From positions 1-35,863 of the IMG/VR virus record IMGVR_UViG_3300020469_000120: 35,863 nucleotides of DNA. One strand, given 5' to 3'. The stretch comes from a virus. A program made the translations under genes and the position numbers. Below the pieces are notes generated by a model. That model saw nothing but the letters and a program-made list of their open reading frames with translations, had not been told where the DNA came from and searched no databases. Of this stretch, positions 1 through 35,863 are shown piece after piece (position 1 is the stretch's first letter; every line of letters begins with the position of its first letter).

Positions 1-126
1 GAGAAACTTTTAGGTAGGCAAAGTTCCGAAGTAGGTGAGCTAAGAAAAGTCGTTGATGATTATATCCAGACACAACTTACAAGCGAGAACGCACCGAAAC
101 AAAAGGATGAACAGGAAGAAATAGAT
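1..126. repeat. Contig-end overlap, left copy (circular join)
   Basis: This stretch is repeated at the far end of the window (35738-35863) over 126 bases with one difference: T at 78 against C at 35815. The change is silent because both codons are Leu. The overlap lies inside the scaffolding gene and restores one open frame, so it marks circular assembly or circular permutation rather than a functional terminal repeat. Confidence 0.93.
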
Positions 127-618
127 TTTTTCTCTGATCCAGAAAAGGCAGTTGAAAATGCTATTAGCAACCATCCAAAGATACAAGAGGCAGAAAGAGC
201 CTCGTTAGATTACCAACAAAAGACTGCGATGACTGCATTAGAAAGTAAGCATCCAGACATGAAAGATATTTTATCTGATGGTAAATTTGTTGAATGGATT
301 AAAGCTAGTAAAATTAGAACACAGCTTTTTGCACAAGCGGACAGAGCGTATGATTATGAAGCCGCTGATGAATTGTTTTCCAACTGGAAAGAACGTCAGC
401 AAGTAGTAAGCCAAACTGCGAGTAGTGAAAAACAACAACGCAAAGATGCACTTAAAGTTGCATCGACTGGCAATGCTAGAGGAAGCGGTGAAAAAGCATC
501 GAAAAAAATCTATAGACGTTCAGACATTATTAAACTAATGAAGGACGATCCAGAAAGATATTTAGCATTGTCAGATGACATTATGCAAGCTTATCGAGAA
601 AGGAGAGTCCGTAACTAA
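1..618 (+). CDS. Capsid scaffolding protein, C-terminal part
   Basis: The frame is open from base 1. It is the continuation of the gene starting at 35534, and joined across the overlap the protein is 273 residues, of which 205 are encoded here. An ATG at 229 is internal and not the start. The joined protein is highly charged and predicted helical, with an acidic N-terminal half and a basic C-terminus containing KKIYRRSDIIKLMKDD and ending in RERRVRN. An acidic body with a basic helical tail placed directly before the capsid gene is typical of podovirus scaffolds, which bind coat protein through the C-terminal helix and leave during maturation. Function is inferred from position and composition. 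Confidence 0.85.
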   Translation, partial: EKLLGRQSSEVGELRKVVDDYIQTQLTSENAPKQKDEQEEIDFFSDPEKAVENAISNHPKIQEAERASLDYQQKTAMTALESKHPDMKDILSDGKFVEWIKASKIRTQLFAQADRAYDYEAADELFSNWKERQQVVSQTASSEKQQRKDALKVASTGNARGSGEKASKKIYRRSDIIKLMKDDPERYLALSDDIMQAYRERRVRN

Positions 619-639
619 TCTTATTATAGGACTTGTATT

Positions 640-1593
640 ATGGCTACATCAACTTACCCTGCAATGGGTGGAGCAGTAGATAACACTAGCGCGGCTACTT
701 TTATTCCAGAAATTTGGAGTGATGAAGTAATTGCCGGTTATGAAAAATCTTTAGTACTTGCTAACCTAGTCAAGAAAATGGCTATGACTGGCAAGAAAGG
801 AGATTCTCTACATATTCCAAAACCAACTAGAGGTTCCGCCTCTGCTAAAGCTGAAAACACAGCAGTAACAATTCAAAACGCAAGCGAGAGTGAAGTTATA
901 GTAACTGTCGATCAGCATTTTGAGTACTCACGTTTAATTGAAGACATCACTGAAGTTCAAGCTTTAGCTTCTTTACGTCAGTTCTACACCGGTGACGCAG
1001 GATACGCACTTGCAAAGCAAGTAGACGATTCTTTGTTTGCACTTGGTAAGTCTCTAGGTGATGGAGATGGATCAGACTTCACACACTCAAACGTGTTTAA
1101 CTTTGCCGGTTCTTCAGGTATCGAAACGTATGCAGTAGACAGTGTTGCGTCTACTGACTTATTTAACGATGCCGGTTTCCGAGCCGCTATCCAACAAATG
1201 GATGATGCCGATGTCCCTATGGACGGACGCTCTCTTATTGTCCCACCTTCAGTAAGAAATGAAATCATGGGTATTGACCGATATATGTCTTCCGACTTCG
1301 TAGACGGAAGGGGTGTAAGAAACGGTCTTATCGGTAACCTTTACGGTATTGATATCTTTGTTTCATCTAACTGTCCTATCATTGAAACTGCCGCCGCCAA
1401 CAGCGCCGGTGGAGATGTTAAAGAAGCTTTACTTGTTCACACTGATGCTATGGTATTAGCAGAGCAACAAGGGGTTCGTTCACAGACTCAGTACAAGCAA
1501 GAGTTCCTTGGAACCTTGTATACTGCTGATACTCTTTATGGTTGTAAAGTATTGCGACCAGAGTCAGGCATAGTATTGGCTGTTAACGGATAA
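640..1593 (+). CDS. Major capsid protein
   Basis: This 317-residue protein follows the scaffold by 21 bases and is followed by a terminator-like hairpin, as is usual for the most abundant virion protein. The sequence resembles major capsid proteins of T7-like and marine podoviruses: a conserved N-terminal FIPEIWSDEVIAGYEKSLVLA-type segment (residues 22-41), a K/S-rich loop near KKGDSLHIPKP, then a body with VPMDGRSLIVPPSVRNEI around residues 190-207. The HK97 fold is expected for the family and not shown directly. A GGA lies in the short gap upstream of the ATG. Codon choice at Ala-Ala and Ala-Gly pairs strictly follows the GCWGC/GCTGG avoidance seen genome-wide. Confidence 0.9.
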   Translation: MATSTYPAMGGAVDNTSAATFIPEIWSDEVIAGYEKSLVLANLVKKMAMTGKKGDSLHIPKPTRGSASAKAENTAVTIQNASESEVIVTVDQHFEYSRLIEDITEVQALASLRQFYTGDAGYALAKQVDDSLFALGKSLGDGDGSDFTHSNVFNFAGSSGIETYAVDSVASTDLFNDAGFRAAIQQMDDADVPMDGRSLIVPPSVRNEIMGIDRYMSSDFVDGRGVRNGLIGNLYGIDIFVSSNCPIIETAAANSAGGDVKEALLVHTDAMVLAEQQGVRSQTQYKQEFLGTLYTADTLYGCKVLRPESGIVLAVNG

Positions 1594-1601
1594 GTAAAAA
1601 C

Positions 1602-1625
1602 GAGGGGAGTCTTTTGATTCCCCTC
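1602..1625 (+). terminator. Hairpin after capsid gene
   Basis: A 10-bp stem with one G-T pair (1602-1611 with 1616-1625) and a TTTT loop begins 8 bases after the capsid stop. The arms are GAGGGGAGTC and GATTCCCCTC. Only a weak T run (ATTTA) follows, so it may act as a leaky terminator that reduces fibre transcription, or as a 3' stabiliser of capsid mRNA. Confidence 0.7.
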
Positions 1626-1642
1626 ATTTACTGGGAGTTATT

Positions 1643-1957
1643 GTGGCATTATTTAGAGGAACAGGTGGATCAGGTACATCTACAGCTTTTGGTCTTCTTG
1701 ATGAAGTTACTCAACAGGCTTTAATAGCTCAAAATGCAAGTACTCTTGCAACTCAAGCTATTAATTCTTTTGATAGTTTTGATGATAGATACTTAGGTTC
1801 AAAAACCTCAGATCCTTCTGTAGACAATGATGGAAATACTTTATTAGTCGGAGCTTTATATTTTAATAGTAATGAAAATGAGTTAAAAATATATACAGGT
1901 TCTACTTGGATAGCAACTTTAAACTCTGCTAGTGTAATAACTGGTGGAGGTTTTTAA
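1643..1957 (+). CDS. Small fibre-like virion protein
   Basis: 104 residues, GTG start with a GGGAG ribosome site 6 bases upstream. The N-terminus is Gly/Ser/Thr-rich. The middle (FDDRYLGSKTSDPSVDNDG, then LLVGALYFNSNENELKIYTG) matches a segment common in marine podovirus and cyanophage fibre or tail appendage proteins. It lies between capsid and the first long fibre, so a tail-fibre adaptor or small appendage role is likely. No enzymatic motif is visible. Confidence 0.7.
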   Translation: MALFRGTGGSGTSTAFGLLDEVTQQALIAQNASTLATQAINSFDSFDDRYLGSKTSDPSVDNDGNTLLVGALYFNSNENELKIYTGSTWIATLNSASVITGGGF

Positions 1958-1969
1958 TAGGATAGAAAC

Positions 1970-13559: not shown

Positions 13560-14582
13560 ATGGCAGTAAATGATATAATAGGGATGCTAACAGGCAACCC
13601 AATGGGTCAACAAAAGCAGCAACCTTCCGTTTATGCTAACCCTTTTCAATCTATTATGGCAGGAATGGATGCAGATGCCGCCGCTACTGGTGCTATTGGA
13701 CGTACTATTCAAGACGGTGTTCGTACTATGTTTGGTCTTCCTCCTAGAGAACTAACTAGGGAAGAACAATTTCAAGATATGTTAGGCGGTATAGAAGACT
13801 TTGGATCAGAAGAAGGGTTTAATCAATTTCTTGATGCTTATGCAATGGTTGATCCTTTTGCAGTTGAAGACATTCGTAGACAAAGAAGACTTGATGCAGA
13901 AGCGGCAGAAGATAGAGCTTTGCGTACATCTAAAATGGGATTAGACATGGCTAATACTCAACAGATAATGGATGCTAGAGAAACTCAACAAGAAGAAAAA
14001 CAAGATGCAAAATTAACAGATCAACTTTATAGAACAAGTTTAGTTGAACAAGCTCAAGAAATGGGTGTAGGAAATGAAGCTATTAACAGAAGTTTAATGA
14101 CTGCACCAAAATCTGATTTAGCAAGTATCTTTGAAGGACTAACAAAAGAAAAACCTTTAACTGGAGTTTCAACAGTTTTTACTGAAGATGGAAAAATAGT
14201 TCAATTTGGAAGAAACGATAAAAACGAAATTGTATCTATAGGAGATAATAAGTTTGATCCTAATCAGTCTTATTTTACAAGTAATCCTAGAACAACAGAA
14301 AAGCCTGTACCTCCTATAGTTATTAAATCTCCTTCTGCTAGTATGAGAAAAACATATGAAACTCTTTTAGATGGTGAGTTACAAACAGGTGGCATTTTTG
14401 GTTTTAATCAAAGTCAAGATCCAAAAGCTGTTGAACGAGCCATTTATATGGCAGAAGATTATCGGACAAAGAACGACAATGTTAGCCCTGAAGACGCAAT
14501 TAATTATGCTTTACAAGTTCTTGGTATGTCATCAGGTGAACAAACAGGTGATTCTTTTTCAGGCGTTAAATTAAAGAAATAA
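13560..14582 (+). CDS. Internal virion protein (second of three)
   Basis: 340 residues, acidic and helical, with a coiled-coil-like middle (about residues 95-150, RRQRRLDAEAAEDRALRTSK and onward). AAGGGG lies upstream of the ATG. It is placed where T7 gp15-type proteins occur, between a small ejection protein and a very large one. I do not recognise a domain. The only GCWGC word in the genome (13616-13620) falls in its Lys-Gln-Gln codons. Confidence 0.6.
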   Translation: MAVNDIIGMLTGNPMGQQKQQPSVYANPFQSIMAGMDADAAATGAIGRTIQDGVRTMFGLPPRELTREEQFQDMLGGIEDFGSEEGFNQFLDAYAMVDPFAVEDIRRQRRLDAEAAEDRALRTSKMGLDMANTQQIMDARETQQEEKQDAKLTDQLYRTSLVEQAQEMGVGNEAINRSLMTAPKSDLASIFEGLTKEKPLTGVSTVFTEDGKIVQFGRNDKNEIVSIGDNKFDPNQSYFTSNPRTTEKPVPPIVIKSPSASMRKTYETLLDGELQTGGIFGFNQSQDPKAVERAIYMAEDYRTKNDNVSPEDAINYALQVLGMSSGEQTGDSFSGVKLKK

Positions 14583-14592: not shown

Positions 14593-17430
14593 ATGCGTAC
14601 TCTTACGTTAGACGATATACAAAATAGTCCTACGTTGCAATCTTTTGGAGCTTTAGCCGGCGATCAAGTTGATAAAGACAATAACCTTGTTAGAGTTTTT
14701 TCTCAAGAAGAAGATTTTGTAGGAGACACTGGTGTTTCTCTTTCTGAATTACAAATTAATTCAAGTCCTAATTTACAAAAGTTAGGGGCTGAAGTTGGTG
14801 ATCGGATAATTAATAATGAACTAGTTAAAACTAAAAACAATAGTACTTATAAACAATTTATGTACGGCATGGATGAGTCTGGAAATATTGTAAGTAATTT
14901 AGCTAGTATTTTAGAAGCTCGTTTTCCGTTAGGTAAGCTTACTGTAGACTTTAATGGTTTTAATTATGAATCTCCAAATGAATTATATGGAAAAGAATTT
15001 ATGGAGTCTCCGGTTGAAGAACGAAGGGAGATGATATTAAGAGCTAAAGAAAGAGAACTACAGGAAGAATACGGTACTTTTTTTGAGCCTCAAGACGGAG
15101 GGGCTAGAACATCAGGTGCAGTAGCAAAAGGTATTCTTGATCCTACTACGCTTATTCCTATGGGTGCAGGAATAAAAACTATTGCCGCCGTGGGTGGAGG
15201 CTTAGGTGTAACTTACAGTGTAACTGATGATATGGTACAGGACGGTGAAGTTGATCCGTCTAAAGCTTTAGTAACAGGGGCGTTGTCCGCGGTTATTCCT
15301 GCCGGTTTAGTTAAGGGAACAAGAGTAGTTGTAAATAAAGCTACTCAAAAAGGTGCTAATAAAACTATAGATAAAGCCGAACAAATATTAAATAACCATG
15401 TATCTTTAGGTAAAGATATGTCTGAACCTTCTAAGGTTTTATTAAACAACGGATTAAATCCTGCTAAAGTTGAAAAAGCTATAAAGGTTTCCGGTAGAAA
15501 ATTAAAACTTCCTCTTAATGCAACTCAAGCAGACAGAGCAGTTAAAGAAGCTATTACTAGGGACTCTTCCGTTTCTCGTTTGTATAGCCCTGCTCTTGAT
15601 AAATATATGGGTGCTATTTCTACACGAATACGCAATATTTCTGAGCCTCTTTTTGCTCGTTTAAGAAAGTATGAATATAACACTCATGTTAAAACACAAG
15701 ATGCAATGAATCAAACTCAACCTTTTTTAACAGAGTTTTATAATTTAGCTCCTCGTATTAAACAGAAAATTTCTTTGCATTTATTTAATGGAGAAACAGA
15801 AGCCGCACAGAATTTAATGAAAGGACAATCACAATCGTTGCTTGACTCTTTTAATAATCAAGTAAGACCTCTTCTTAAAAAAACTAAACTAAAACTTCAA
15901 GAAGCAGGACATACAATTAACGATATTGAGGGTTACTTTCCTCGCCTTGTAAAAGACTATGATGGTTTAGTAGAATCTTTTGGTAAACAAAATGAAGGTG
16001 TTTTACAAAAAGCACTAAAAGATTATGCAGATAAAAAGAAAATAAAAGTAAGTAATTTGTCTTCAGAAGAAAGAACCCATGTTCTTGATATGACTTTTAG
16101 AGGATATCGAATGACTACTGATGGGGGCAAACCTCGTTTTGTTAAAGGAAGACAAATTAAAAACTTAACAACAGATCAATTAAAGTTTTATGCGGAACCT
16201 GAAGAGTCTTTATCTATGTACTTACGCGGATCAATAAATGATATTGAAAGAAGAAAGTTTTTTGGTCGAGTAGAAAAAGATGAAGTAGGAGATATTGATT
16301 TAGACAGCTCAATAGGCGCTGTAGTTGATGATGTTATGGCAAAAGGAAACTTAAATAGCAAACAACAAACAGAACTTAGAGATATGCTACAGGCTAGGTT
16401 TATAGGGGGAGAAAAAACAACTGGACCTAAGTCTACATTAATAAGAAATGTTGGATACATGGGAACTATTGCTAATCCTATTTCTGCTTTAACTCAGTTA
16501 GGCGATGCGGCAACCTCAGCATCTTTATATGGATTTAGAAATACTTTTGCATCAATGTTTGGAACTAAAGAAGTTAAATTAATTGATTTAGGTTTAGAAA
16601 ATATTATTACAAAAGAATTAGGTGGAGACATTTCTAAATCTGCTGAAGTGCTTACATCAATGATGAATAAATCAGGGTTTGCTACTGTAGATAGGTTAGG
16701 TAAACAAACAATTATTAATGCGGCTTTAAAACAAGCAAGACAACAAGCTACTAAAAATTCCAAGAAATTTATTAAAGATAATGAATCTATATATGGTTCA
16801 GAAACTCAATCTTTACTTGCTGATTTGCAAAGCGGTCAAGTAACAGACAATGTAAAACTATTATTGTTTAACAAGATAGCAGACATACAACCTATAGCAT
16901 TAAGTGAAATGCCTCAAGCATATTTAAACGCACAAACAGGTAGACTTGCTTATATGCTTAAATCGTTTACGTTAAAACAAATGGATGTCGTTAGAAACAA
17001 CATTGTTAAACAGTATAAAACAGGGAACAAAAAACAAGCAATTAAAAACGCTACATATTTAGCAGGATATTTAACAGTAGCTAACACAGGTGTTCAGGCT
17101 ACTAAAGATATCTTACTTGGGAGAGAAGTTAGACCTCAAGATATTCCTGAAAGGGCTACCTTCGCGTTGTTAGGAGTTTACGGAATAAATAAATATATGA
17201 GCGATAGATATCTACAACGTGGAGATATTAAAGGATTAGCGGCAAACACTATTATACCGGCAACTCCTGTGTTTGATGCGGCAGGAAAATTAGTTACAGA
17301 AACTTTATCAAGCGATGAAGAAAAAGATTATTCAACTGTATTAAAAGGTGTGCCAGTAGTAGGACCAATGCTTTATAATTGGTTTGGTGGTGGAGCCGAA
17401 AAGTTTAACGAGAGGTTAGATGATGAGTAA
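14593..17430 (+). CDS. Large internal virion / ejection protein
   Basis: 945 residues. The N-terminus carries two imperfect copies of a ~33-residue motif (NSPTLQSFGALAGDQV near 12 and SSPNLQKLGAEVGDRI near 52). A hydrophobic Gly/Ala segment follows around residues 188-210 (TLIPMGAGIKTIAAVGGGLG), then a long helical body, and a C-terminus with KGVPVVGPMLYNWFGGGAEKF. That last motif is common at the end of large phage ejection or polyvalent proteins. No lytic transglycosylase motif is evident. It probably exits with DNA and spans the periplasm or inner membrane, like T7 gp16. It overlaps the next gene by 11 bases. Confidence 0.7.
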   Translation: MRTLTLDDIQNSPTLQSFGALAGDQVDKDNNLVRVFSQEEDFVGDTGVSLSELQINSSPNLQKLGAEVGDRIINNELVKTKNNSTYKQFMYGMDESGNIVSNLASILEARFPLGKLTVDFNGFNYESPNELYGKEFMESPVEERREMILRAKERELQEEYGTFFEPQDGGARTSGAVAKGILDPTTLIPMGAGIKTIAAVGGGLGVTYSVTDDMVQDGEVDPSKALVTGALSAVIPAGLVKGTRVVVNKATQKGANKTIDKAEQILNNHVSLGKDMSEPSKVLLNNGLNPAKVEKAIKVSGRKLKLPLNATQADRAVKEAITRDSSVSRLYSPALDKYMGAISTRIRNISEPLFARLRKYEYNTHVKTQDAMNQTQPFLTEFYNLAPRIKQKISLHLFNGETEAAQNLMKGQSQSLLDSFNNQVRPLLKKTKLKLQEAGHTINDIEGYFPRLVKDYDGLVESFGKQNEGVLQKALKDYADKKKIKVSNLSSEERTHVLDMTFRGYRMTTDGGKPRFVKGRQIKNLTTDQLKFYAEPEESLSMYLRGSINDIERRKFFGRVEKDEVGDIDLDSSIGAVVDDVMAKGNLNSKQQTELRDMLQARFIGGEKTTGPKSTLIRNVGYMGTIANPISALTQLGDAATSASLYGFRNTFASMFGTKEVKLIDLGLENIITKELGGDISKSAEVLTSMMNKSGFATVDRLGKQTIINAALKQARQQATKNSKKFIKDNESIYGSETQSLLADLQSGQVTDNVKLLLFNKIADIQPIALSEMPQAYLNAQTGRLAYMLKSFTLKQMDVVRNNIVKQYKTGNKKQAIKNATYLAGYLTVANTGVQATKDILLGREVRPQDIPERATFALLGVYGINKYMSDRYLQRGDIKGLAANTIIPATPVFDAAGKLVTETLSSDEEKDYSTVLKGVPVVGPMLYNWFGGGAEKFNERLDDE

Positions 17431-19334: not shown

Positions 19335-21224
19335 TTACTCTATTTCACACGCTCCGCCAACACACGCTAACTCTTGAGAACCAGTAGTATTATCTTCCTG
19401 TTCAAAGTTCGACAGGGCTGACCAGTCAATATCTTTAGGCATTGCATTCTTCAACTCCATATACTTGTCTTTGCATATCTTTTCATAAGGAGCTTGTTGA
19501 TATACATGATCGCTGTAAGGTAATAAACTTATACCGGAACAAATATCAAAGTTATCCCACACCCACTGAGCAACCTCCAAGAACTCATCATCTGTATAAT
19601 AAACTGTAATACTGGGCTTATGTTCACACCAATCGTTCTGGTAAGCCTCCCATAAATTTAACTGTTCTATCGCGCTAACCTTGACATCTCCTGACATACT
19701 AGTCGGTGGAGATTTAACCGGAAAACTAAACACTAGATTGGAAGGATTCATTAAGTCCTGTTCCACAGGGAACCCAGACTTTTCCATGAAGGTAGATAGC
19801 GGATCTTTTTGGTCTCCACGTACTCGCCTAATATAATACTGAGAAAAGCGAGGGTGAATCCCACTAGCAGAGTCAACCAACTGAGAAACCGTACCGCTAG
19901 GCTTAACACAAGTAATAGCGGCAGACTGATTAATACCAAGGCGTTCTGCCCACTCTGCATTAGTGTTGATTGCAACATATTTCATCTCCTTTAACCATCT
20001 TGAGTGCATAATAGTAGCAGTCTCAGGTCTTTGTAAAACATCGTGATCCATGATTCCAGTAAGGCTTACACCAAGTAACGCCTCTTCCTCTGTATTCTTT
20101 TTCCATATCTTTCTTAGATATCTAAAGTCAGTTAAGGTAGCCTGTAGTGTTCCAATGATAGTGGCAATCTCAACTTTTCTTTTCAGTGACTTAAGATTAT
20201 CTTCAGGTCTAACAACAACCTCAGATAGATTACAGAATTGATTTGATCTCAAGATAATTTCAGAGCAAGGGTTAGTACCGAAATCCTGATTCGGGTCACG
20301 CCTTTCGTTTCTTGCCGCAATATTCTGTGCCGCAACTCTACTAAAGATACCACGCTCTCCTGCTTTGGACTCATAAAGATTCTGCATCTCAGCAAGGAAA
20401 GATTCAAAGTCAGGCTTTTCGGTGTATGCTACGCTATTGTTAGCTAACCTACGTTGTCCTTCTGCGTTCCACCAATCTCCGGACTTAGCTCTCGCCATTC
20501 TCTGGTCTGACAAGTTAGATAAACTAATTAAAGCTGATCTCCTAACGCCCCCCACTACCACAATGTCAGCTATTTTGCAACAGATATCGTGACATTCTAT
20601 GGACGTAAGTTTTCTCCCTGCGGCTTTTTGAAACGCAGAGATACAGAAGTTAAACAAATCAACTAAAGGTTCAGGACCGCTAGCTCTGCCGCCAAAGGTT
20701 TTTAGTCTAGCACCGGACGGTCTGACTTTACTAACGTCATACTGCGGTATCTTACCGGCGTACAGCATAGCGATAAGCTCTCTAAATGCAGATGCCCACC
20801 CTATCTTACTATCAGCCACAACGATTACGCTGTCTGACTTATGGAATGTCTCAGCTATGATTGGTAGTTTGTTGACAAAGTTTCTTTCAACACTAAAGCC
20901 GACTCCAGTTCCGCACATGAGAACGTACATCAGTTCATCAAATGCTCTGGGCGAATCTATGTGTAGATAACTACAGTTAAATCCGGCTACGTTGTCTTTA
21001 TCTAACGCCTCTCCTGCTGTCATAAGACATCTCATGCTAGGCATTACATCAAGATCGTGTATTGCTTTGAACAATTTCTTACCCATCTTGCTGTCTATCT
21101 GTTTACGATTAAGCCAGAAGTCCACATATCTTTGAACTGTTTCAGCCCACGTTTCCCTTCTTCCTTCTTCCGGAATCCAACGTGCATACCTAGACTTGTG
21201 TATAAACTGTTGATACTGATCCAT
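19335..21224 (-). CDS. nrdJ: Adenosylcobalamin-dependent ribonucleoside-triphosphate reductase (class II)
   Basis: 629 residues, a monomeric class II RNR of the Lactobacillus type (about 740 residues there), shortened as usual in phages. It reduces NTPs to dNTPs using B12. Visible catalytic residues are Cys84 (GFNCSYLHI) and Cys331 (FCNLSE), the redox pair; Cys320 and Glu322 in NPCSEI, for the thiyl radical and general acid/base; and Cys621/Cys626 in the C-terminal CVGGAC shuttle. GVRRSALISLS and the KPSGTVSQL nucleotide-site motif are also present. GGAGGAG precedes the ATG, which directly follows the DUF3310 stop. As the last gene of the replication arm it supplies dNTPs and would depend on cobalamin in the host. 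Confidence 0.96.
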   Translation of the reverse strand: MDQYQQFIHKSRYARWIPEEGRRETWAETVQRYVDFWLNRKQIDSKMGKKLFKAIHDLDVMPSMRCLMTAGEALDKDNVAGFNCSYLHIDSPRAFDELMYVLMCGTGVGFSVERNFVNKLPIIAETFHKSDSVIVVADSKIGWASAFRELIAMLYAGKIPQYDVSKVRPSGARLKTFGGRASGPEPLVDLFNFCISAFQKAAGRKLTSIECHDICCKIADIVVVGGVRRSALISLSNLSDQRMARAKSGDWWNAEGQRRLANNSVAYTEKPDFESFLAEMQNLYESKAGERGIFSRVAAQNIAARNERRDPNQDFGTNPCSEIILRSNQFCNLSEVVVRPEDNLKSLKRKVEIATIIGTLQATLTDFRYLRKIWKKNTEEEALLGVSLTGIMDHDVLQRPETATIMHSRWLKEMKYVAINTNAEWAERLGINQSAAITCVKPSGTVSQLVDSASGIHPRFSQYYIRRVRGDQKDPLSTFMEKSGFPVEQDLMNPSNLVFSFPVKSPPTSMSGDVKVSAIEQLNLWEAYQNDWCEHKPSITVYYTDDEFLEVAQWVWDNFDICSGISLLPYSDHVYQQAPYEKICKDKYMELKNAMPKDIDWSALSNFEQEDNTTGSQELACVGGACEIE

Positions 21225-22719: not shown

Positions 22720-24450
22720 TTAGTGAGTTTCTGCCCACGAATCTCCGACTTTGTACTCCCCTTCGAGTGGGCAGTTGAGATTGAAGTGCAGTCCTGCCGC
22801 CTCGATACAGCTACAGGCGAGTCTACCAAAAACCTCAGCCTTCTCTTGCTCGACCTCTGTCTGGATTTCATCGTGTATATTACCTACAAAGTGATACTTA
22901 AGTTTCCATTTAGTTGCGTACTCATCCAACAAAGCAAGGGCTTTCTTCATAACAATAGCTCCTGCTGATTGTAGCAACGTATTTAGAGCCGCGTGTTCTG
23001 ATCGTACATAGACCCTTCGCCTATCCAGTCCAAGAACATAGCCTCTTCCTGCCGCCACGCTAACTCTTTCTCGTAGCTCTTTAAGAGCCGGCGTATTTCT
23101 GAGGAATTTTTCCTTAACTCTTCGACCATCTCCTGCATTTCCACCGATGATAGTTCCGATCTTAGCATCTCCGGCTCCGTAAAGAAAAGCGTAGTAGAAA
23201 GTCTTCGCCTGATCTCTAGTCGCAACGCCGCTAGCCAACTGATTTGCACTGTGAATGTCTCCCTGCAATACTTCATTTGTATAGTCCTCGTCATTCATGT
23301 AATGTGCTAGCATACGTGCCTCAAGGCCACTAGCATCCATACCTACTATTTTATAACCATCAGGGGCAATCCATAGTTCTCTACATTCCTTCCCATAGGG
23401 AGAATATACAGCCGGAATTTGCCCCATGTTTGGTCCTGAGTGAGTCATTCGTCCAGTCACAGCACCGTTAGTATTGACGTATCCGTGGACTCTACCATCG
23501 TCCTCAACTGCATCAACCCAACTCTGTATCTGAGCGACTCTTTTTTGTATCATCAAGTACTCACCAATCAATGTAGCTTGGGGTATTCCCTTGACTTTAC
23601 TCAGCACATTCTCGTCTACAACTGGATGTCCAGTCTCAGTAAGCTTCTCAGGTTTCCACCCGAAATGTTGCAAGTGCCTACCGATTTGTTGGCGAGAACC
23701 TAGATTGAACAACGGATAGTCGAGCCTACTGAAAGCACCACAAACTGTTCCCCATTGTTCCCCTAGAAATTTTAAACCAACAACCGATGTCGTCCCATCC
23801 TTTTTAATTTTCGGAACGACTGTCTTAATAAATACCGGTAACGGTTTAAATGTTTTCTGCACATCTTCTTCAAGTTCATTCTTTCTCTCCTTAAGTTTAG
23901 CCAATAATTCTAGAGCTTTCCCCTCATCAAGTAACCATCCTCGATCAATCTGCCTTGTAATAATGCTTTGTACTTGACGCTCAAGATCAATGCTTTCAGA
24001 GCTAAAACCTCTAAGTTTATGTACGAGCGTCCTGTAGACCTGTACATTAAGTTTAACATCTTGTATGCAATACGATAGCATATCATACGAAAAAACTGTC
24101 CAATCATTATGTTCTCCTTTTGGATAGTTCAACATATTACCCCAGTTTTCCAGAGAGTGTCCACCATCTCTCGATGGGTCTTCCAGTCTGGACATGACTA
24201 GAGTATCCGTAAGTTTGCACTCAGAGAAATCAACCTTAAGTAACTTCTCTAGTACTGGTATATCATATCCAATAATATTGTGACCGATGAACTCGATGGG
24301 TTTATTATCTTCAACCCACTTAGGAAAATCTTGAAGTGCTGTGTCTACCCAAGATGTACCTTCATCTGTCTCCAGATTATGGATGCAAATACACCATACA
24401 GTATCAGGCTTGAGACCATTTGCCTCTATGTCGATCACTACCTTGTCCAT
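22720..24450 (-). CDS. DNA polymerase, family A (T7-like)
   Basis: 576 residues (T7 gp5 has 704). The N-terminal 3'-5' exonuclease is intact: Asp7/Glu9 (VIDIEANG), Asp63 (HNIIGYDIP) and Asp131 (YCIQDVKLN). The polymerase motifs are TGRMTHSGPNMGQIP (332-346), motif A MDASGLEAR with Asp372, motif B R412-K416-Y420-Y424 in RDQAKTFYYAFLYG, and motif C HDE at 526-528. The residue equivalent to E. coli Pol I Phe762 is Tyr420, as in T7. The missing length lies mainly in the thumb/linker region. The start overlaps the helicase stop (TAATG). Confidence 0.97.
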   Translation of the reverse strand: MDKVVIDIEANGLKPDTVWCICIHNLETDEGTSWVDTALQDFPKWVEDNKPIEFIGHNIIGYDIPVLEKLLKVDFSECKLTDTLVMSRLEDPSRDGGHSLENWGNMLNYPKGEHNDWTVFSYDMLSYCIQDVKLNVQVYRTLVHKLRGFSSESIDLERQVQSIITRQIDRGWLLDEGKALELLAKLKERKNELEEDVQKTFKPLPVFIKTVVPKIKKDGTTSVVGLKFLGEQWGTVCGAFSRLDYPLFNLGSRQQIGRHLQHFGWKPEKLTETGHPVVDENVLSKVKGIPQATLIGEYLMIQKRVAQIQSWVDAVEDDGRVHGYVNTNGAVTGRMTHSGPNMGQIPAVYSPYGKECRELWIAPDGYKIVGMDASGLEARMLAHYMNDEDYTNEVLQGDIHSANQLASGVATRDQAKTFYYAFLYGAGDAKIGTIIGGNAGDGRRVKEKFLRNTPALKELRERVSVAAGRGYVLGLDRRRVYVRSEHAALNTLLQSAGAIVMKKALALLDEYATKWKLKYHFVGNIHDEIQTEVEQEKAEVFGRLACSCIEAAGLHFNLNCPLEGEYKVGDSWAETH

Positions 24451-26081
24451 TAGAAATCTCCATCATCAACTGGACAAGTAGTTTCGTGCATCCGTCCTGT
24501 GTCCTTGTCATAGAACAAGTAACAAGCCGGCCCTGTGAGTCCCACAAATCTATTCTTAAGGACTCGTACTGTAGTTGTGTTTCTAACCTTGGGGTCTTTG
24601 TGTTGTTGATCACGCTCCAAACCAATCACGATGTCGGACAACTGAGCGATAGCCGCTGAACCTCTGAGTTCACCTAAACTTATCTTGCCGCCGTCTTCAT
24701 GCGCCTTGGAACCACTTGGTCTTCTCAAGTGAGATACAAGAAACAAACCAACTCCAGTTTCCTGAACTAGCTTTCTCAAGTTAGTCATTATACTGTCGAT
24801 AGCTTTTCTCTCATCCCCTGTATCCTGATCACTCACAACAATACTCAGGTGGTCCAGTATAATCCACTTACAGTCCAGACCTTTTGCCATGTACCTTATT
24901 CTTCCCAATAGGTTGTCTTCATTTGTAGACCCCCAATGATCGAACAAGTACACCCGATTCTTACCTAAAGTATTCTCCCAATATCTTCTCTTATCATCCT
25001 CGCTAACGTGTTTATCTAAGTGAAGTAAACGATTGGCCTCGATGGACATAAGACCTAGTGCTGTCTTGGTAATGTCCTCTTCGAGCGCAAGGATGCCAAT
25101 GTTATCTTCAGTTTGTTGCAATAAATAATACTCAAGCTCACGTACTATTTGTGATTTACCCATGCCGGAACCAGATGTTATGGTCACCAATTCTTGGGGT
25201 CTAAAACCGTATGTAAGCTCGTTTAAGCAAGCCCAAGGGTAGGGTATAGACTCCCTATCGGAACGCTCTAATATCATGTCCCACGTATCTCTACCGGCAA
25301 CTATACCATCGGGTTGATAGGTCTTTGCGTTCCACCACTCACGAACAAACGCTTGGACCTTGTTTTCCTGTAGCATGGCCCCTGCGTCCTTCAAGGGGAG
25401 TACTACATTCTTAGCTTTGTTGGGACTAAAGAGATCAAGCACACGCTTTGCCGCATCTTGTCCTGCCTTATCACTATCAAAGCATATCACTACGTTCTCA
25501 AACGATTCTAACCATTCAAGATTTTCTTTGATATCCTTTGCGGCTCCGGCGGCTCCACTTCTGATCGAGACAACGGCGTACTTTCCATCGAACATTTCAC
25601 TGACAGCCATGCCGCAGACCTCGCCCTCTGTGATCGTAACGTACTTACCGCCACCCTTGAACGCCTGTTGACCGAACAACCCAACATTATTGAACTCTCC
25701 TGTAGAATAAAAGTTTTTGTTTTCACATATCCTGACCTTCGAGCCAGTCAATGCACCTGAATCCTTATCATAGTAAGGGTAGTAATGTTTCACGATTTGT
25801 CCGTCCGATCCGAACTCGACAGTCACGCCATACTTACTGGCGATGGACTGACTAATTCTTCTGTCGGGGATCGCGGCAATAACTCCTGTCATGTCTAAAG
25901 ACCTCGATTGTTTATATCTTTCCAGACTGACCACGTTACCGTCACCTCTTTCTCTGTAGCCACATTCGGCTGTAAAGCAAAACGCATGACCGTCTGAATA
26001 TCTAGCTAAGTTATCCTGTGAGCCACACTTAGGGCATGGCTCATGTTGGATAAATTTAGAATCGTCCTGACCTTTTATCAA
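24450..26081 (-). CDS. Primase-helicase (T7 gp4-like)
   Basis: 543 residues (T7 gp4 has 566), both halves complete. The zinc ribbon is Cys16/Cys19/Cys35/Cys40. The TOPRIM primase has Glu152 (ITEGEV) and Asp202/Asp204 (CFDSDKAGQDAA). In the RecA-type helicase, Walker A is GSGMGKS (304-310), Walker B is WIILDHL with Asp410, and the sensor is His451 in VSHLRRP; the region ISLGELRGSAAIAQLSD also matches DnaB/T7 helicases. It primes and unwinds for the polymerase encoded next. The start overlaps the SSB gene by 4 bases. Confidence 0.96.
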   Translation of the reverse strand: MIKGQDDSKFIQHEPCPKCGSQDNLARYSDGHAFCFTAECGYRERGDGNVVSLERYKQSRSLDMTGVIAAIPDRRISQSIASKYGVTVEFGSDGQIVKHYYPYYDKDSGALTGSKVRICENKNFYSTGEFNNVGLFGQQAFKGGGKYVTITEGEVCGMAVSEMFDGKYAVVSIRSGAAGAAKDIKENLEWLESFENVVICFDSDKAGQDAAKRVLDLFSPNKAKNVVLPLKDAGAMLQENKVQAFVREWWNAKTYQPDGIVAGRDTWDMILERSDRESIPYPWACLNELTYGFRPQELVTITSGSGMGKSQIVRELEYYLLQQTEDNIGILALEEDITKTALGLMSIEANRLLHLDKHVSEDDKRRYWENTLGKNRVYLFDHWGSTNEDNLLGRIRYMAKGLDCKWIILDHLSIVVSDQDTGDERKAIDSIMTNLRKLVQETGVGLFLVSHLRRPSGSKAHEDGGKISLGELRGSAAIAQLSDIVIGLERDQQHKDPKVRNTTTVRVLKNRFVGLTGPACYLFYDKDTGRMHETTCPVDDGDF

Positions 26082-29151: not shown

Positions 29152-29291
29152 CTTTGGGGGGCGGGGGGGCTTTTTGCTACATTATTTTTTTTATGTACCC
29201 TACGGCATACAAAAAAGACTAAATTAGAAAAAAAAGATTAACTCGGCCCTTTAAGTAAACATTTGATTTACAAGTGAAATCTACACGCCGC

Positions 29292-29343: not shown

Positions 29344-29353
29344 GTAATAAAGC

Positions 29354-29382: not shown

Positions 29383-29484
29383 AAAAAGTATAGTTTAGAA
29401 CGTACTAAAGTAAAACTAAATGCCTTTAGATTGTTTATTAAGTTATTAATTAAATAATAAACTAAAGATAACTAAGAGATACTT

Positions 29485-30208: not shown

Positions 30209-31458
30209 CTGAGTTAAACGTATCGTTACTTCCGTGGCAACAAGAAGTTTTTAACGATACAACAAGATTTAAAGTTATTGCCGCAGGAAGACGAACCGGC
30301 AAAAGTAGGTTAGCCGCTTGGATGCTAATCATCAGAGGGCTACAAGCTGACAGGGGCCATGTGTTTTACGTAGCACCCACTCAAGGTCAGGCTAGAGATA
30401 TTATGTGGCAAGTATTGATGGAGCTAGGCCATACAGTAATTGCCTCAAGTCACGTTAATAATTTACAAATAAAATTAATTAACGGTGCAACCATAGCTCT
30501 GAAAGGAGCAGACAGACCCGAAACGATGCGAGGGGTTAGTCTTAGGTTTCTTGTCATGGATGAGTATGCCGACATGAAACCCGAAGTATGGGAACAGATA
30601 TTACGTCCGGCACTTGCGGACCAAAAAGGTGATGCGTTGTTTATTGGAACCCCAATGGGCAGGAATCACTTTTACGATTTATATACATACGCTTGTGTGT
30701 CAGACGATCCGACATTTGTTGGTTATCATTTTACAAGTTATGATAATCCATTGTTAGATAAAGAGGAAATAGACGCGGCTAAACAGTCGATGTCAGCTTT
30801 TTCCTTTAGACAAGAGTTTATGGCATCTTTTGAAGCACAAGATTCCGAACTGTTTAAGGAAAAGTATGTTAAGTTTTCTGAGGAAGAACCAGATATAGGT
30901 GATTATTATATCTCAGTGGACTTAGCCGGTTTTGCAGATGTTAACAAAGCTACAACAAAAACAAAACGTCTGGACCAAACAGCTATTTCCGTAGTAAAAG
31001 CTAACGAAGAAGGATGGTGGGTAGCGGAAATTATCCACGGTAGATGGGATGTTAAGAAAACAGCAAATAAAATCTTTGAAGCTGTAGCTGATTATCGTCC
31101 AGTTGCCGTAGGTATAGAAAAAGGTGCGTTAAAAAACGCAGTACTTCCGTATTTAAGCGACTTAATGAAGAAACATCAAAGGTTTTTTAGAGTTGACGAG
31201 CTTACACACGGTAATAAAAAGAAAACTGACCGTATTGTTTGGGCATTACAGGGTCGGTTTGAACACGGAGCTATAGTTTTAAATAAAGGAGACTGGAATA
31301 CACAGTTCCTAGATGAATTGTTTCAGTTTCCTAACCCTTTAGTTCACGATGACCTGATTGATTCTTTATCATACATAGATCAATTAGCAAATATAGCATA
31401 TACTTCCGATTTTGAGGAAGAGGAATATGAATTTTTAGACGCATATACAGGATATTGA
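30205..31458 (+). CDS. terL: Terminase large subunit
   Basis: 417 residues with both domains. ATPase: Walker A AGRRTGKS (27-34), Walker B RFLVMDEYAD with Asp119/Glu120, and coupling motif GTP at 148-150. Nuclease: Asp239 in ISVDLAG, a second acidic site near LDQTA, and the C-terminal HDDLIDSLSY motif. It packages DNA into the prohead through the portal encoded next. The start is TTG, overlapping the endolysin stop; no ATG or GTG lies upstream of the Walker A in this frame, so the TTG is accepted and suggests low, coupled expression. Confidence 0.95.
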   Translation: MTELNVSLLPWQQEVFNDTTRFKVIAAGRRTGKSRLAAWMLIIRGLQADRGHVFYVAPTQGQARDIMWQVLMELGHTVIASSHVNNLQIKLINGATIALKGADRPETMRGVSLRFLVMDEYADMKPEVWEQILRPALADQKGDALFIGTPMGRNHFYDLYTYACVSDDPTFVGYHFTSYDNPLLDKEEIDAAKQSMSAFSFRQEFMASFEAQDSELFKEKYVKFSEEEPDIGDYYISVDLAGFADVNKATTKTKRLDQTAISVVKANEEGWWVAEIIHGRWDVKKTANKIFEAVADYRPVAVGIEKGALKNAVLPYLSDLMKKHQRFFRVDELTHGNKKKTDRIVWALQGRFEHGAIVLNKGDWNTQFLDELFQFPNPLVHDDLIDSLSYIDQLANIAYTSDFEEEEYEFLDAYTGY

Positions 31459-31459
31459 T

Positions 31460-33406
31460 ATGGCTTATAATGATAATGAAAATTTTATGGTCGAAGAAAC
31501 TTTAGAGGGTTGGGTAAACGATAAGTGTTTAGACTGGAAGAATCATTTTGATACAAATTACTCCAGAAAGTTTGATGAATACTATCGTTTGTGGCGTGGA
31601 CAATGGTCTGGGGAAGATAAAACTAGAGGCTCTGAGCGATCTCGTATCGTCAGTCCTGCATTACAACAAGCTGTAGAGTCAGCAGTAGCGGAGCTAGAGG
31701 AAGCTACTTTCGGTAGAGGTAAGTGGTTTGACATTGAAGATGATGTCATGGATAACGAAAAAGCCGACATTGCTTATCTTAGGGAAACTCTTCTTAAAGA
31801 TTTTAAAAAGAATAAAATTAGAAAAGCAATAGCGGAATGTCTAATAAACTCAGCAGTTTTTGGCACAGGTATTGCTGAGATTGTTTTGGAAGAAGAAAAG
31901 AACATGGTTCCGGCTACTCAACCTGTCATGGGAGGAGACCTTACTGCTGTAGGTGTAAATGTCGAAGACAAAGTTTGTGTTAAGTTACGTCCTGTTATGC
32001 CTCAAAACTTTTTAATTGATCCGGTTGCTACTTCAGTTGAGGAAGCAATGGGAGTTGCAGTAGATGAGTTTGTTTCTTTACATACAGTTGAAATGCTACA
32101 GGAAAAAGGTGTATATCGAGATGAAGAAATAAGCTCTAGTCCTCCAGACTTTGATATAGAAGCCGATAAAGAAGCGGTATCCTATGCTGAAAATAAAGTT
32201 AGATTATTAAAGTATTATGGTTTAGTTCCTAGAGAATTATTAGAAAAAGCACAATCAGAAGACAATGCCGAAGATGAGACTAATTTATCAGTTGATAGCA
32301 CAGATGAAATAGAAAGTCAATACGTAGAGGCTATTGTTGTTATAGCTAATGAAGGAACACTTTTAAAAGCTGAAGCCAATCCTTACATGATGGAAGATAG
32401 ACCAATAGTTGCTTTTCCTTGGGACGTAGTGCCTAGCCGTTTCTGGGGTAGAGGTATATGTGAGAAAGGATATAACTCTCAAAAAGCATTAGACGCTGAA
32501 CTAAGAGCTAGAATAGACGCTTTAGCTTTAACCATTCATCCTATGTTGGCTATGGATGCAACAAGATTACCTAGAGGAACAAGACCTGAAGTTAAAGCAG
32601 GAAAAGTTATATTAACTAACGGTTCTCCTAACGAAGTACTTAAGCCATTTAACTTTGGCAATGTCAGTCAACTTACGTTTGCTCAAGCAGACTCTTTACA
32701 AAAAATGGTACAAACCGCAACCGGAGCTATTGACTCCGCAGGAATAGCCGGAAGTATTAACGGTGATTCCACAGCGGCAGGAATATCTATGTCTTTAGGT
32801 GCAATCATTAAAAGACATAAACGAACTCTTATAAACTTTCAGGAATCTTTTTTAATTCCTTTTGTAACAAAAGCCGCACACAGATATATGCAGTTTTCCC
32901 CTGAAGAATATCCGGTAGCTGATTACAAGTTCCATACTTCAAGCTCGTTAGGTATTATTGCTAGAGAATATGAAGTATCACAGCTTGTACAGTTGTTACA
33001 AACAATGTCTCCTGAAACTCCAATGTATTCACAGTTGATCATGTCTATTATAGATAACATGAACTTGTCTAATCGTGAGCAATTAATAGCATCACTACAA
33101 CAAGCTAATCAACCAAACCCAGAAGCAATGGAAGCACAACAAGCGGCACAACAATCTCAATTAGCTTTCCAAGCATCGCAAACTGCGGCGTTAAATGGAC
33201 AAGCTGTAGAGTCACAAGCAAGAGCCGCGAAGCTAGCTACTGAGGCACAAAGTATTCCGGAAGAATTAGAAATAGATAGAATTAAAGCTGTCACTACTAA
33301 TCTTAAGGAAGGAACCGCAGAGGACAAAGAGTTTGAACGTAGGATAAAACTTGCTGATCAACTGCTTAAAGAAAGACAAGTAGCCGTAAAGGAGAGAATA
33401 AATTAA
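31460..33406 (+). CDS. Portal protein
   Basis: 648 residues. The N-terminal half contains RSRIVSPALQQAVESAVAEL and ATFGRGKWFDIEDD, and the core has PQNFLIDPVATSVEEAM and VAFPWDVVPSRFWGRGICEKG, all characteristic of podovirus portals. The C-terminal ~110 residues are Gln/Ala-rich and helical (EAMEAQQAAQQSQLAFQASQ onward), likely the barrel reaching into the capsid. It lies between the T7 (536) and P22 (725) portals in size. The ATG follows the TerL stop by one base. Confidence 0.93.
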   Translation: MAYNDNENFMVEETLEGWVNDKCLDWKNHFDTNYSRKFDEYYRLWRGQWSGEDKTRGSERSRIVSPALQQAVESAVAELEEATFGRGKWFDIEDDVMDNEKADIAYLRETLLKDFKKNKIRKAIAECLINSAVFGTGIAEIVLEEEKNMVPATQPVMGGDLTAVGVNVEDKVCVKLRPVMPQNFLIDPVATSVEEAMGVAVDEFVSLHTVEMLQEKGVYRDEEISSSPPDFDIEADKEAVSYAENKVRLLKYYGLVPRELLEKAQSEDNAEDETNLSVDSTDEIESQYVEAIVVIANEGTLLKAEANPYMMEDRPIVAFPWDVVPSRFWGRGICEKGYNSQKALDAELRARIDALALTIHPMLAMDATRLPRGTRPEVKAGKVILTNGSPNEVLKPFNFGNVSQLTFAQADSLQKMVQTATGAIDSAGIAGSINGDSTAAGISMSLGAIIKRHKRTLINFQESFLIPFVTKAAHRYMQFSPEEYPVADYKFHTSSSLGIIAREYEVSQLVQLLQTMSPETPMYSQLIMSIIDNMNLSNREQLIASLQQANQPNPEAMEAQQAAQQSQLAFQASQTAALNGQAVESQARAAKLATEAQSIPEELEIDRIKAVTTNLKEGTAEDKEFERRIKLADQLLKERQVAVKERIN

Positions 33407-34861: not shown

Positions 34862-34864
34862 AAC

Positions 34865-34893
34865 TTGACTTTGTTTTTAAAATGTGATACAAT
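34865..34893 (+). promoter_or_regulatory. Sigma70 promoter for capsid operon
   Basis: TTGACT, exactly 17 bases, then TACAAT. It lies in the only real gap (34862-34957) between packaging and capsid genes and would boost scaffold and capsid transcription. Confidence 0.85.
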
Positions 34894-34897
34894 AATC

Positions 34898-34907
34898 AAG
34901 TATACTT
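34898..34907. promoter_or_regulatory. Palindrome at transcription start of capsid promoter
   Basis: AAGTATACTT is a perfect 10-bp palindrome 4 bases after the -10. AAGTATAGTT (29386-29395) holds the matching place at the packaging promoter. A shared operator or initial-transcribed-region element is likely. Confidence 0.55.
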
Positions 34908-34957
34908 AGTATAGTATATTTAATTATTAATTTAACTGTCCTTATAGGAGAAACAGT

Positions 34958-35254
34958 ATGGAACAAGTGCAAGAACCAGTCGATCAAGAAAAAGTCAACC
35001 AAGCGTTTGAAGCAATGTTTAGAACAAAAGGTTGGAAAATATTTCTTGAGGACTTAAGAAACAATGCTATGCAAATTGCTAATATAGAAGCTTGCAAAGA
35101 TTTGAAAGACCTTTACTTCCGTAAGGGACAGCTTTCAATCATGGGTAATATATTAAATTTTGAGGAAGCATTGAAGACAGCTAAGGAACAAGCTGAAGCT
35201 GAAGAAACTGAAGAATTTGAAGGAGATGATGAAGTTTCTAAAAGTGTAAACTAA
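34958..35254 (+). CDS. Small acidic protein upstream of scaffold
   Basis: 98 residues. A helical region (FEAMFRTKGWKIFLEDLRNN, then YFRKGQLSIMGNILNFEEAL) is followed by a very acidic tail (EAEETEEFEGDDE). GGAG lies before the ATG. Proteins of this pattern regularly lie just upstream of the zinc ribbon and scaffold genes in marine podoviruses. A head-assembly role is likely from location. Its stop overlaps the next start (TAATG). Confidence 0.72.
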   Translation: MEQVQEPVDQEKVNQAFEAMFRTKGWKIFLEDLRNNAMQIANIEACKDLKDLYFRKGQLSIMGNILNFEEALKTAKEQAEAEETEEFEGDDEVSKSVN

Positions 35255-35484
35255 TGCGAGTTTATTTCGATTTTAAATGTGACAATGGACATATTACAGA
35301 AAAGTTCATAGATAACAAAACTAAAGAAATAACTTGTCCAGTTTGCTCCGGTATAGCTAGAAAAATGATATCTCCAGTTCGCAGTCTCCTTGATCCTATT
35401 TCGGGTGATTTTGTAGGTGCTACCATGAAATGGGCTAGAGACCGCGAAAAGAAGATACAGAAAGAACGTAAGGCAAATTCATAG
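35254..35484 (+). CDS. FmdB-like zinc-ribbon protein
   Basis: 76 residues. YFDFKCDNGHITEKF and TCPVCSGIARKM give a zinc site of CxxxH/CPVC type (Cys9, Cys28, Cys31), as in FmdB-type putative regulators, followed by a basic helical tail (KWARDREKKIQKERK). Similar ribbons occur before phage scaffold genes. Its role could be head assembly or regulation. Confidence 0.75.
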   Translation: MRVYFDFKCDNGHITEKFIDNKTKEITCPVCSGIARKMISPVRSLLDPISGDFVGATMKWARDREKKIQKERKANS

Positions 35485-35533
35485 TAATCCTTACACAATA
35501 CACCTCCATAATGGGATACCACGGAGTTTAATA

Positions 35534-35863
35534 ATGGCAACATTTATTGAGCGTCAGGATAAAGACGATAAAAAAGAAGACGAAGTAATTAGCGATATTA
35601 ATGAAACAAGTGTTGATAAACCTTTAGAAGAATTAGAGGAACCAACAACCGAAACGGAAGCTAGCACTGAGGAAGTAATTCCTGATAAGTACCAAGGTAA
35701 AAGCACAGCGGAAATAGTGCGTATGCACCAAGAAGCTGAGAAACTTTTAGGTAGGCAAAGTTCCGAAGTAGGTGAGCTAAGAAAAGTCGTTGATGATTAT
35801 ATCCAGACACAACTCACAAGCGAGAACGCACCGAAACAAAAGGATGAACAGGAAGAAATAGAT
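35534..35863 (+). CDS. Capsid scaffolding protein, N-terminal part
   Basis: The start ATG has GGAG 7 bases upstream. The first 68 codons before the overlap encode an acidic, disordered stretch (DKDDKKEDEVISDINETS, then EELEEPTTETEASTEEVIPD). DKYQGKSTAEIVRMHQEAEK follows, a motif typical of podovirus scaffolds. The last 42 codons repeat the window start; the remainder of the 273-residue protein is at 127-618. Confidence 0.88.
   Translation, partial: MATFIERQDKDDKKEDEVISDINETSVDKPLEELEEPTTETEASTEEVIPDKYQGKSTAEIVRMHQEAEKLLGRQSSEVGELRKVVDDYIQTQLTSENAPKQKDEQEEID
35738..35863. repeat. Contig-end overlap, right copy (circular join)
   Basis: Matches 1-126 except C at 35815 in place of T at 78. See the left copy. 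Confidence 0.93.

What the first reader, a model, noticed from the sequence alone, without database searches (positions are those of the whole stretch)
1..35863. GCWGC is almost absent from the genome
Scanning both strands by eye I found one GCAGC (13616-13620) and no GCTGC. GCGGC and GCCGC together occur about 80 times. At a GC content near 38 percent (my estimate), chance predicts roughly 25-30 GCWGC. Ala-Ala pairs are always written GCG-GC or GCC-GC, although GCA and GCT are the usual Ala codons elsewhere. This is a codon-pair effect best explained by strong selection against the DNA word, most simply a host restriction enzyme cutting GCWGC.
Basis: partly seen in the sequence, partly recalled or inferred. 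Interest (0 to 1): 0.8.

Follow-up and report, generated by a model that had tools for sequence, protein, structure and literature searches.

The report
Marine phage erasing several restriction sites
This small marine virus of bacteria has removed several short DNA words from its genome, most likely because enzymes in its host cut DNA at those words, and its relatives lack different sets of words that look like records of the hosts they have met.

Summary
GCWGC occurs once (13616) in 35,863 bases; 33 (maximal Markov), 41 (dinucleotides) or 59 (codon shuffle) are expected. It is not alone: CCAGC/GCTGG, CCWGG, CCSGG and CGWCG are also absent, while the neighbour GCAGG/CCTGC is not (67). The depletion is at DNA level: Ala codons change only where the next codon would complete the word. 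Among 236 related IMG/VR loci plus the window the trait is nearly all-or-none and clade-structured: of 208 informative loci GCWGC is eliminated in 60 and normal or enriched in 145. CCAGC switches partly independently; GATC, GGCC, CCGG and GGWCC are eliminated in other subsets. Six reference phages avoid neither GCWGC nor CCAGC. One relative is mosaic: 27 of its 29 CCAGC sites lie in one 8.3-kb block. No phage methyltransferase explains the trait. Best explanation: selection by host restriction enzymes, a known phage strategy, here as a combinatorial, switching and recombining set. Not shown: the host is unknown and no cognate restriction gene was found. CCAGC matches no specificity that I recall.

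The parts
1..35863 (.). Whole phage genome from which GCWGC, CCAGC/GCTGG, CCWGG, CCSGG and CGWCG are (nearly) eliminated
   Evidence: word counts and codon shuffles
13616..13620 (+). The only GCAGC; spans AAG-CAG-CAA (Lys-Gln-Gln) of the ORF at 13560-14582, where a synonymous change would remove it
1..126 (+). Left copy of a 126-base direct terminal repeat (1 mismatch); suggests a complete genome
35738..35863 (+). Right copy of the 126-base direct terminal repeat
640..1593 (+). Major capsid protein, P22/Phage_capsid_2 type
   Evidence: Pfam PF19821, PF11651
30205..31458 (+). Terminase large subunit, marker used for the tree
   Evidence: Pfam PF03237, PF17289; tree
31460..33406 (+). Portal protein, SU10/P22 type
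   Evidence: Pfam PF23899, PF16510
22720..24450 (-). Family A DNA polymerase
   Evidence: Pfam PF00476; 52% to HTVC103P
24450..26081 (-). Primase-helicase (Toprim plus DnaB_C)
19335..21224 (-). B12-dependent ribonucleotide reductase
   Evidence: 61% to roseophage CRP-403
17420..19177 (+). 585-aa protein without family match; the only gene cluster found in 3 of 4 GCWGC avoiders and 0 of 10 non-avoiders compared
   Evidence: no Pfam, PADLOC or PHROG match

Best explanation
The genome belongs to an uncultivated group of small marine tailed phages whose hosts carry several sequence-specific restriction enzymes. Phage DNA that holds an unprotected GCWGC, CCAGC, CCWGG, CCSGG or CGWCG is cut on entry. 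Changes that destroy these words, mostly synonymous, have been fixed until practically none is left, with the rest of codon usage unchanged. Which words are gone depends on the restriction systems that a lineage's hosts have carried, so the set differs between clades, switches, and travels in blocks when phages recombine. Shown: the elimination, its DNA-level nature, its near all-or-none distribution, its clade structure with repeated change, and mosaic blocks. Inferred: that the selecting agent is host restriction, and that each word belongs to its own enzyme.
For: Depletion of five independent words far beyond codon-shuffle nulls. Word-specific codon changes: in GCWGC-avoiding loci Ala before GC ends in A/T in 13 of 1243 codons against 3427 of 4454 elsewhere, while Ala before other bases is unchanged; in CCAGC-avoiding loci GCT before GG is 13 of 1371 against 903 of 2366, replaced mainly by GCA. 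Bimodal distribution over relatives, clade structure with few changes on three gene trees, mosaic blocks. GCWGC is a documented methyltransferase and restriction specificity (passages of PMC6329791; abstract of PMC8936443). Site elimination by phages is an established strategy (PMC6286503). Reference phages lack these two depletions.
Against: No host, no restriction gene and no methylome were found; the host scan gave conflicting labels. CCAGC, CCGAG and CCCGT are asymmetric, and PMC6286503 reports elimination mostly for orthodox Type II sites and under 0.5% for other types. CCWGG is eliminated in 46 of 48 long records and in 4 of 6 reference phages, so that word is not specific to a host or clade. 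GCWGC and CCAGC changed in the same direction wherever both changed between independent pairs (too few pairs for significance), so they may not be fully independent. GCWGC is moderately enriched over the dinucleotide expectation in most non-avoiders, which I do not explain. Group labels rest on the same words, so only the replacements and the unchanged contexts are independent evidence there.
Confidence: 0.85

Rival explanations
1. Mutation rather than selection: cytosines in these words are methylated by the host and deaminate, so the words decay.
For: Some of the lost words (CCWGG, GCWGC) are known cytosine-methylation targets (CCWGG in marine viral genomes, passages).
Against: Lost Ala-Ala words become GCG-GC or GCC-GC, a change at the central A/T and not at a cytosine; lost GCT-GG becomes mainly GCA-GG and lost CCA-GC mainly CCT-GC, transversions. 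GATC, eliminated in sister clades, is usually an adenine-methylation site (recalled).
Confidence: 0.03
2. Another DNA-targeting host defence (CRISPR motif avoidance or a modification-independent nuclease with short specificity) selects against the words.
For: Motif depletion linked to CRISPR hosts has been reported (PMC4246573, listing and start of abstract only). CCAGC and CCCGT are asymmetric.
Against: Most eliminated words across the group are palindromes or palindromes with a central W (GCWGC, CCWGG, CGWCG, GATC, GGCC, CCGG, GGWCC), as for Type II restriction. A depleted motif beside a protospacer need not be erased genome-wide.
Confidence: 0.08
3. The phage itself encodes a sequence-specific nuclease against host DNA and must spare its own genome.
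For: The window encodes an endonuclease I-like resolvase and a Cas4-like exonuclease; one 585-aa protein of unknown function (17420-19177) occurs in 3 of 4 avoiders and 0 of 10 non-avoiders compared.
Against: That protein is absent from the fourth avoider, G014 (a 33-kb record that may be incomplete), and has no nuclease match. One gene cannot explain up to six words switching in different combinations.
Confidence: 0.03
4. Codon-pair or composition bias of translation, not a DNA-level force.
For: Most expected GCWGC are in-frame Ala-Ala pairs (51 of about 59 by shuffle).
Against: Out of frame the words are missing too: CCAGC/GCTGG 0 against 10.3 expected, CCWGG 0 against 10.6, GCWGC 1 against 7.6 (frames 1 and 2). 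GCA-GG and ACA-GC pairs are not depleted, and relatives with homologous proteins use GCW-GC freely.
Confidence: 0.01

Closest known systems
Restriction-site avoidance by non-temperate dsDNA phages (PMC6286503; abstract, Results and part 1 of the Discussion read)
   Same: Near-complete elimination (observed/expected under 0.1 with more than 15 expected) of short, mostly palindromic words, GCWGC among the sites treated there.
   Different: Here the host and enzyme are unknown; several words are gone at once; asymmetric words (CCAGC, CCCGT) are included; and the set varies among close relatives and along one genome.
GANTC depletion in pelagiphages (PMC9516812, passages only)
   Same: Depletion of one motif in marine phages that partitions their phylogeny.
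   Different: GANTC is a cell-cycle methylation mark and the paper finds no restriction systems in its Pelagibacterales genomes; in this window GANTC is normal (117/118) and several other words are gone.
GCWGC methyltransferases M.AbaBS3I (PMC6329791, passages) and M.BatI (PMC8936443, abstract)
   Same: Enzymes that read GCWGC exist in nature, one of them in freshwater bacterioplankton.
   Different: Neither was linked to this phage or its host.

Membership tests
Phage restriction-site avoidance | Word nearly eliminated: observed/expected under 0.1 with at least 15 expected | tested here: met
   GCWGC 1/41, CCAGC 0/39, CCWGG 0/36, CGWCG 0/17 by first-order Markov
Phage restriction-site avoidance | Depletion acts on the DNA word, not on protein or codon usage | tested here: met
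   frames; contexts
Phage restriction-site avoidance | Word is the recognition site of a known restriction-modification system | tested here: inconclusive
   GCWGC documented (TseI and M.AbaBS3I); CCAGC not found in one literature search and REBASE is not held; other names are recalled
Phage restriction-site avoidance | Host encodes the cognate enzyme | not testable with these tools
   host unknown; one search gave conflicting labels
Phage restriction-site avoidance | Trait differs between relatives with different hosts | tested here: inconclusive
   differs strongly between relatives, but their hosts are unknown
Phage restriction-site avoidance | Phage does not protect itself by its own methyltransferase | tested here: met
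   PF00145 absent from the window, present in 1 of 57 records; PF01555 in 0 of 37 relatives (the window was not in that search); no methylase among 19 window proteins scanned with Pfam
Phage restriction-site avoidance | Non-temperate lifestyle, where elimination is commonest | tested here: inconclusive
   no integrase among the 19 proteins scanned with Pfam or the 10 scanned with PHROGs; about 20 small ORFs were scanned with neither

The most novel reading that the evidence does not exclude
The eliminated words form a combinatorial, heritable and recombining record of host restriction systems in an uncultivated phage group: each word reads out whether a lineage's hosts carry a given enzyme, block edges of a word inside one genome mark exchange between phages with different host histories, and CCAGC (perhaps CCGAG too) is the footprint of a restriction specificity not yet described.
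Probability: 0.45. Interest if true: 0.7.

Novelty: new member of a known kind. Interest (0 to 1): 0.52.

Why it matters
Hosts of most marine phages are unknown. If eliminated words mirror host restriction repertoires, they give a sequence-only readout that could be matched to bacterial methylomes, help predict host range and host switches, and point to undescribed enzyme specificities. The near all-or-none pattern across about 200 related loci would make phage adaptation to restriction measurable in nature, and the mosaic blocks would expose recombination between phages with different hosts.

Tried and rejected
Host search: one scan of the species-genome collection with a terminase alignment (two peptide patterns) gave 16 loci, 7 of them close (66-71% identity) with conflicting MAG labels: Sphingobacteriales, Verrucomicrobiales, Acidimicrobiaceae, Euryarchaeota, Flavobacteriales (two contigs of one MAG) and Crocinitomicaceae; I take these for mis-binned virus contigs. 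Shine-Dalgarno-like signals in 24 of 31 ATG-start genes against a background of 0.11 speak against a Bacteroidota host (rule recalled). No tRNA gene.

A single word SCAGC covering GCAGC and CCAGC was considered. Not adopted, because some loci avoid one and not the other: of 237 loci (window included) 67 avoid both, 133 neither, 17 only CCAGC, 5 only GCWGC, 15 undecided; for example L093 GCWGC 1/29 with CCAGC 28/23, and L065 53/41 with 2/35. Against full independence: on the trees GCWGC and CCAGC went the same way in every independent pair in which both differed; too few pairs for significance.

A phage gene tracking the trait: one cluster (0 of 4 avoiders, 8 of 10 others) was an ORF-calling artefact, since the gene is in the window too. 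One cluster (17420-19177) is in 3 of 4 avoiders and 0 of 10 others; it remains a weak candidate. Methyltransferase carriage does not explain non-avoiders: PF01555 0 of 37, PF00145 1 of 57. PADLOC gave one weak match (E 0.0097) for 9 window proteins. A weak DarB-like antirestriction match (E 5.9e-5) of 29849-30208 is outweighed by an endolysin match (E 7e-32).

Literature: searches returned no papers; some searches returned lists, and none of the titles and abstract openings shown described GCWGC or CCAGC elimination in phages. I opened four papers (PMC6286503, PMC9516812, PMC6329791, PMC8936443).

Some loci overlap or come from one contig (L054/L102, L027/L151), so loci are not independent genomes. 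Loci with too few expected sites or intermediate ratios were dropped before counts of states. The trees are quick maximum-likelihood trees and label shuffles were 50. On the capsid tree CCWGG shows no clade structure (2 changes, shuffled mean 2.0), because nearly all rows avoid it.
Full report
WHAT IS THERE. The window is an IMG/VR virus record of 35,863 bases with a 126-base direct repeat at its ends, one mismatch, so probably a complete genome of a small tailed phage. It encodes a P22-type capsid, SU10/P22-type portal, terminase, primase-helicase, family A polymerase and B12-dependent ribonucleotide reductase. No close cultured relative was found: no nucleotide match for bases 1-25000, the part tested; polymerase 52% to Pelagibacter phage HTVC103P; terminase up to about 42% over half its length; capsid about 30% to cyanobacterial podoviruses; reductase 61% to roseophage CRP-403; portal 24-28% to HMO-2011-type phages.

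THE OBSERVATION. GCAGC occurs once (13616-13620), GCTGC never; GCGGC and GCCGC occur 87 times. Expected GCWGC is 33 (maximal Markov), 41 (first-order Markov) or 59, minimum 46 in 300 synonymous codon shuffles. The claim is right.

THE LARGER PATTERN. CCAGC/GCTGG 0 (43 by codon shuffle), CCWGG 0 (36 Markov, 10 codon shuffle), CCNGG 0 (17), CGWCG 0 (18) and CCCGT/ACGGG 1 (21) are also eliminated or nearly so, while GCAGG/CCTGC (67), ACAGC (78) and TCAGC (91) are not depleted. In 29 ORFs eight pentamers pass an elimination threshold; 99 of 100 codon shuffles give none. Several palindromic hexamers are low too (AACGTT 0/10, AGATCT 0/12, TTCGAA 0/10), with less power.

DNA LEVEL, NOT CODON LEVEL. 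Most expected sites are in frame, but the out-of-frame ones are missing too: CCAGC/GCTGG 0 against 10.3, CCWGG 0 against 10.6, GCWGC 1 against 7.6. In ORFs of the relatives and the window, loci with a callable state only, Ala codons followed by GC end in A or T in 13 of 1243 cases in GCWGC-avoiding loci against 3427 of 4454 in the others, while Ala codons followed by neither GC nor GG are nearly the same (A 0.336 and T 0.443 against 0.319 and 0.432). In CCAGC-avoiding loci GCT before GG falls from 903 of 2366 to 13 of 1371, replaced mainly by GCA; CCA before GC falls from 389 of 968 to 7 of 460, replaced mainly by CCT. These are what forbidding a word gives, and not products of cytosine deamination. 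The loci were grouped by the same words, so the fall itself is not independent evidence; the replacements and the unchanged contexts are.

RELATIVES. Three protein scans of IMG/VR gave 236 loci. With at least 8 expected sites, GCWGC observed/expected is at or below 0.2 in 60 of 208 loci, between 0.2 and 0.5 in 3, above in 145; CCAGC 71, 2 and 122 of 195; GATC is at or below 0.05 in 46 of 229, between 0.05 and 0.5 in 5, above in 178. Of 48 long records (window included) GCWGC is eliminated in 13, intermediate in 1, normal in 34; CCAGC 18, 4, 26; CCWGG 46, 2, 0; GGWCC 30, 11, 7 (tested as GGACC/GGTCC); CCGG 18, 13, 17; GATC 8, 2, 38; GGCC 5, 15, 28. On a terminase tree of 103 rows the fewest changes are 3 for GCWGC, 8 for CCAGC, 4 for GATC, 3 for GGCC, 14 for CCGG. 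On capsid and polymerase trees GCWGC needs 5 and 6, against at least 23 and 17 in 50 label shuffles. A 12-row clade (L005, L006, L007, L008, L010, L011, L012, L014, L016, L017, L021, L022; support 91) has no GCWGC, GATC, CCGG or GGCC and 0 or 1 CCAGC per contig, with CCWGG 0 to 3. The window's five-row clade keeps GATC and CCGG. The pair L059/L064 lacks GCWGC inside a 43-row clade that otherwise keeps it, which points to a gain there; the tree is unrooted, so direction elsewhere is open.

MOSAICS. In G017 (29,375 bases) 27 of 29 CCAGC sites lie in 15335-23659, where about 14 are expected, against 2 of about 30 outside; inside that block GCWGC, CCWGG, CCGG and GGWCC are still absent. Contig L013 from another metagenome is 96% identical to this genome over 6.5 kb and has 6 of its 9 CCAGC sites in its last 1.9 kb, toward that block, so a chimeric assembly is less likely. 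In G006 all 33 GATC sites lie in 13465-31624, and the first 13.4 kb has 0 where 29.5 are expected. Five of 124 record-word tests beat all 200 random placements, where about 0.6 is expected; one of the five (G013, four sites within 34 bases) is a local cluster and not a mosaic. I read the others as recombination between phages with different restriction histories (inference).

CONTROLS. Six reference phages (HTVC103P and HMO-2011 first 50 kb, CRP-171, CRP-403, ICBM2, Pf-WMP3) have GCWGC at 0.8 to 2.5 and CCAGC at 1.1 to 1.7 times expectation, yet lack other words: HTVC103P GATC 0/118 and GGCC 0/35, HMO-2011 GATC 0/129 and CCWGG 0/65, CRP-171 CCGG 1/66 and CCWGG 1/55, CRP-403 CCWGG 0/58, ICBM2 CCGG 0/63 and CCWGG 1/85. 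CCWGG, by contrast, is lost in 4 of the 6 and so is not specific to this group.

PHAGE-ENCODED CAUSES. PF01555 was found in 0 of 37 relatives and PF00145 in 1 of 57 records including the window (G023, a GCWGC-keeping relative). A gene-content comparison of 4 avoiding and 10 keeping long records found no gene in all avoiders and no keeper; one 585-aa protein without family match (17420-19177) is in 3 of 4 avoiders and 0 of 10 keepers, and another candidate was an artefact.

MECHANISM AND MEMBERSHIP. Loss of sites to escape host restriction is a known phage strategy; PMC6286503 finds 7.1% of sites eliminated for orthodox Type II systems and under 0.5% for other types. This genome works like that. 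Membership is met for extent and DNA level; the decisive feature, the host enzyme, could not be tested. GCWGC, CCWGG and CGWCG have the symmetric form usual for Type II; CCAGC and CCCGT are asymmetric and would be Type IIS-like or other (inference). A marine precedent for clade-wise motif depletion is GANTC in pelagiphages (passages of PMC9516812); GANTC is normal here (117/118). A weak host lead: HMO-2011, which infects Puniceispirillum (SAR116), shares loss of CCWGG and CGWCG and has CCGAG 0/33, where the window has 3/25, but it also lacks GATC, which the window keeps.

VERDICT. Real, strong and correctly interpreted in kind, but too narrow in scope. The phenomenon is known; the combinatorial, switching and mosaic form in an uncultivated group is the part worth following. 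Searches for a printed account were.

Noticed in passing
L294 (EF537008, Phormidium phage Pf-WMP3, 1-43249) and L296 (KF598865, Cyanophage PP, 30000-42480): The trinucleotide AAT/ATT is almost absent: 8 against 791 expected in Pf-WMP3 and 0 against 221 in the 12.5-kb part of PP; the Anabaena phage A-4L part is normal (368/440). A whole 3-base word erased is extreme and unexplained.
   Followed up: partly
L237-L272 (records G006 and G017): Restriction words change state along one genome: GATC in G006 (none in the first 13.4 kb, 33 sites beyond) and CCAGC in G017 (27 of 29 in one block).
   Followed up: partly
L291 (GU557055, Puniceispirillum phage HMO-2011, 1-50000): Also lacks AGCTC/GAGCT (0/102) and CGCTC/GAGCG (0/45) besides GATC, CCWGG, CCGAG and CGWCG, so asymmetric pentamers are erased in a cultured phage with a known host.
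   Followed up: no
L275 (contig binned as Acidimicrobiaceae RS349, 17643 bases): A distant relative with CCWGG three times over expectation (67/22) and GATC 116/69, the opposite of the group.
   Followed up: no
L295 (G023, around 11242-11742): A cytosine methyltransferase gene (PF00145, E 2.2e-28) in one GCWGC-keeping relative, the only one in 57 records.
   Followed up: no
   Followed up: no
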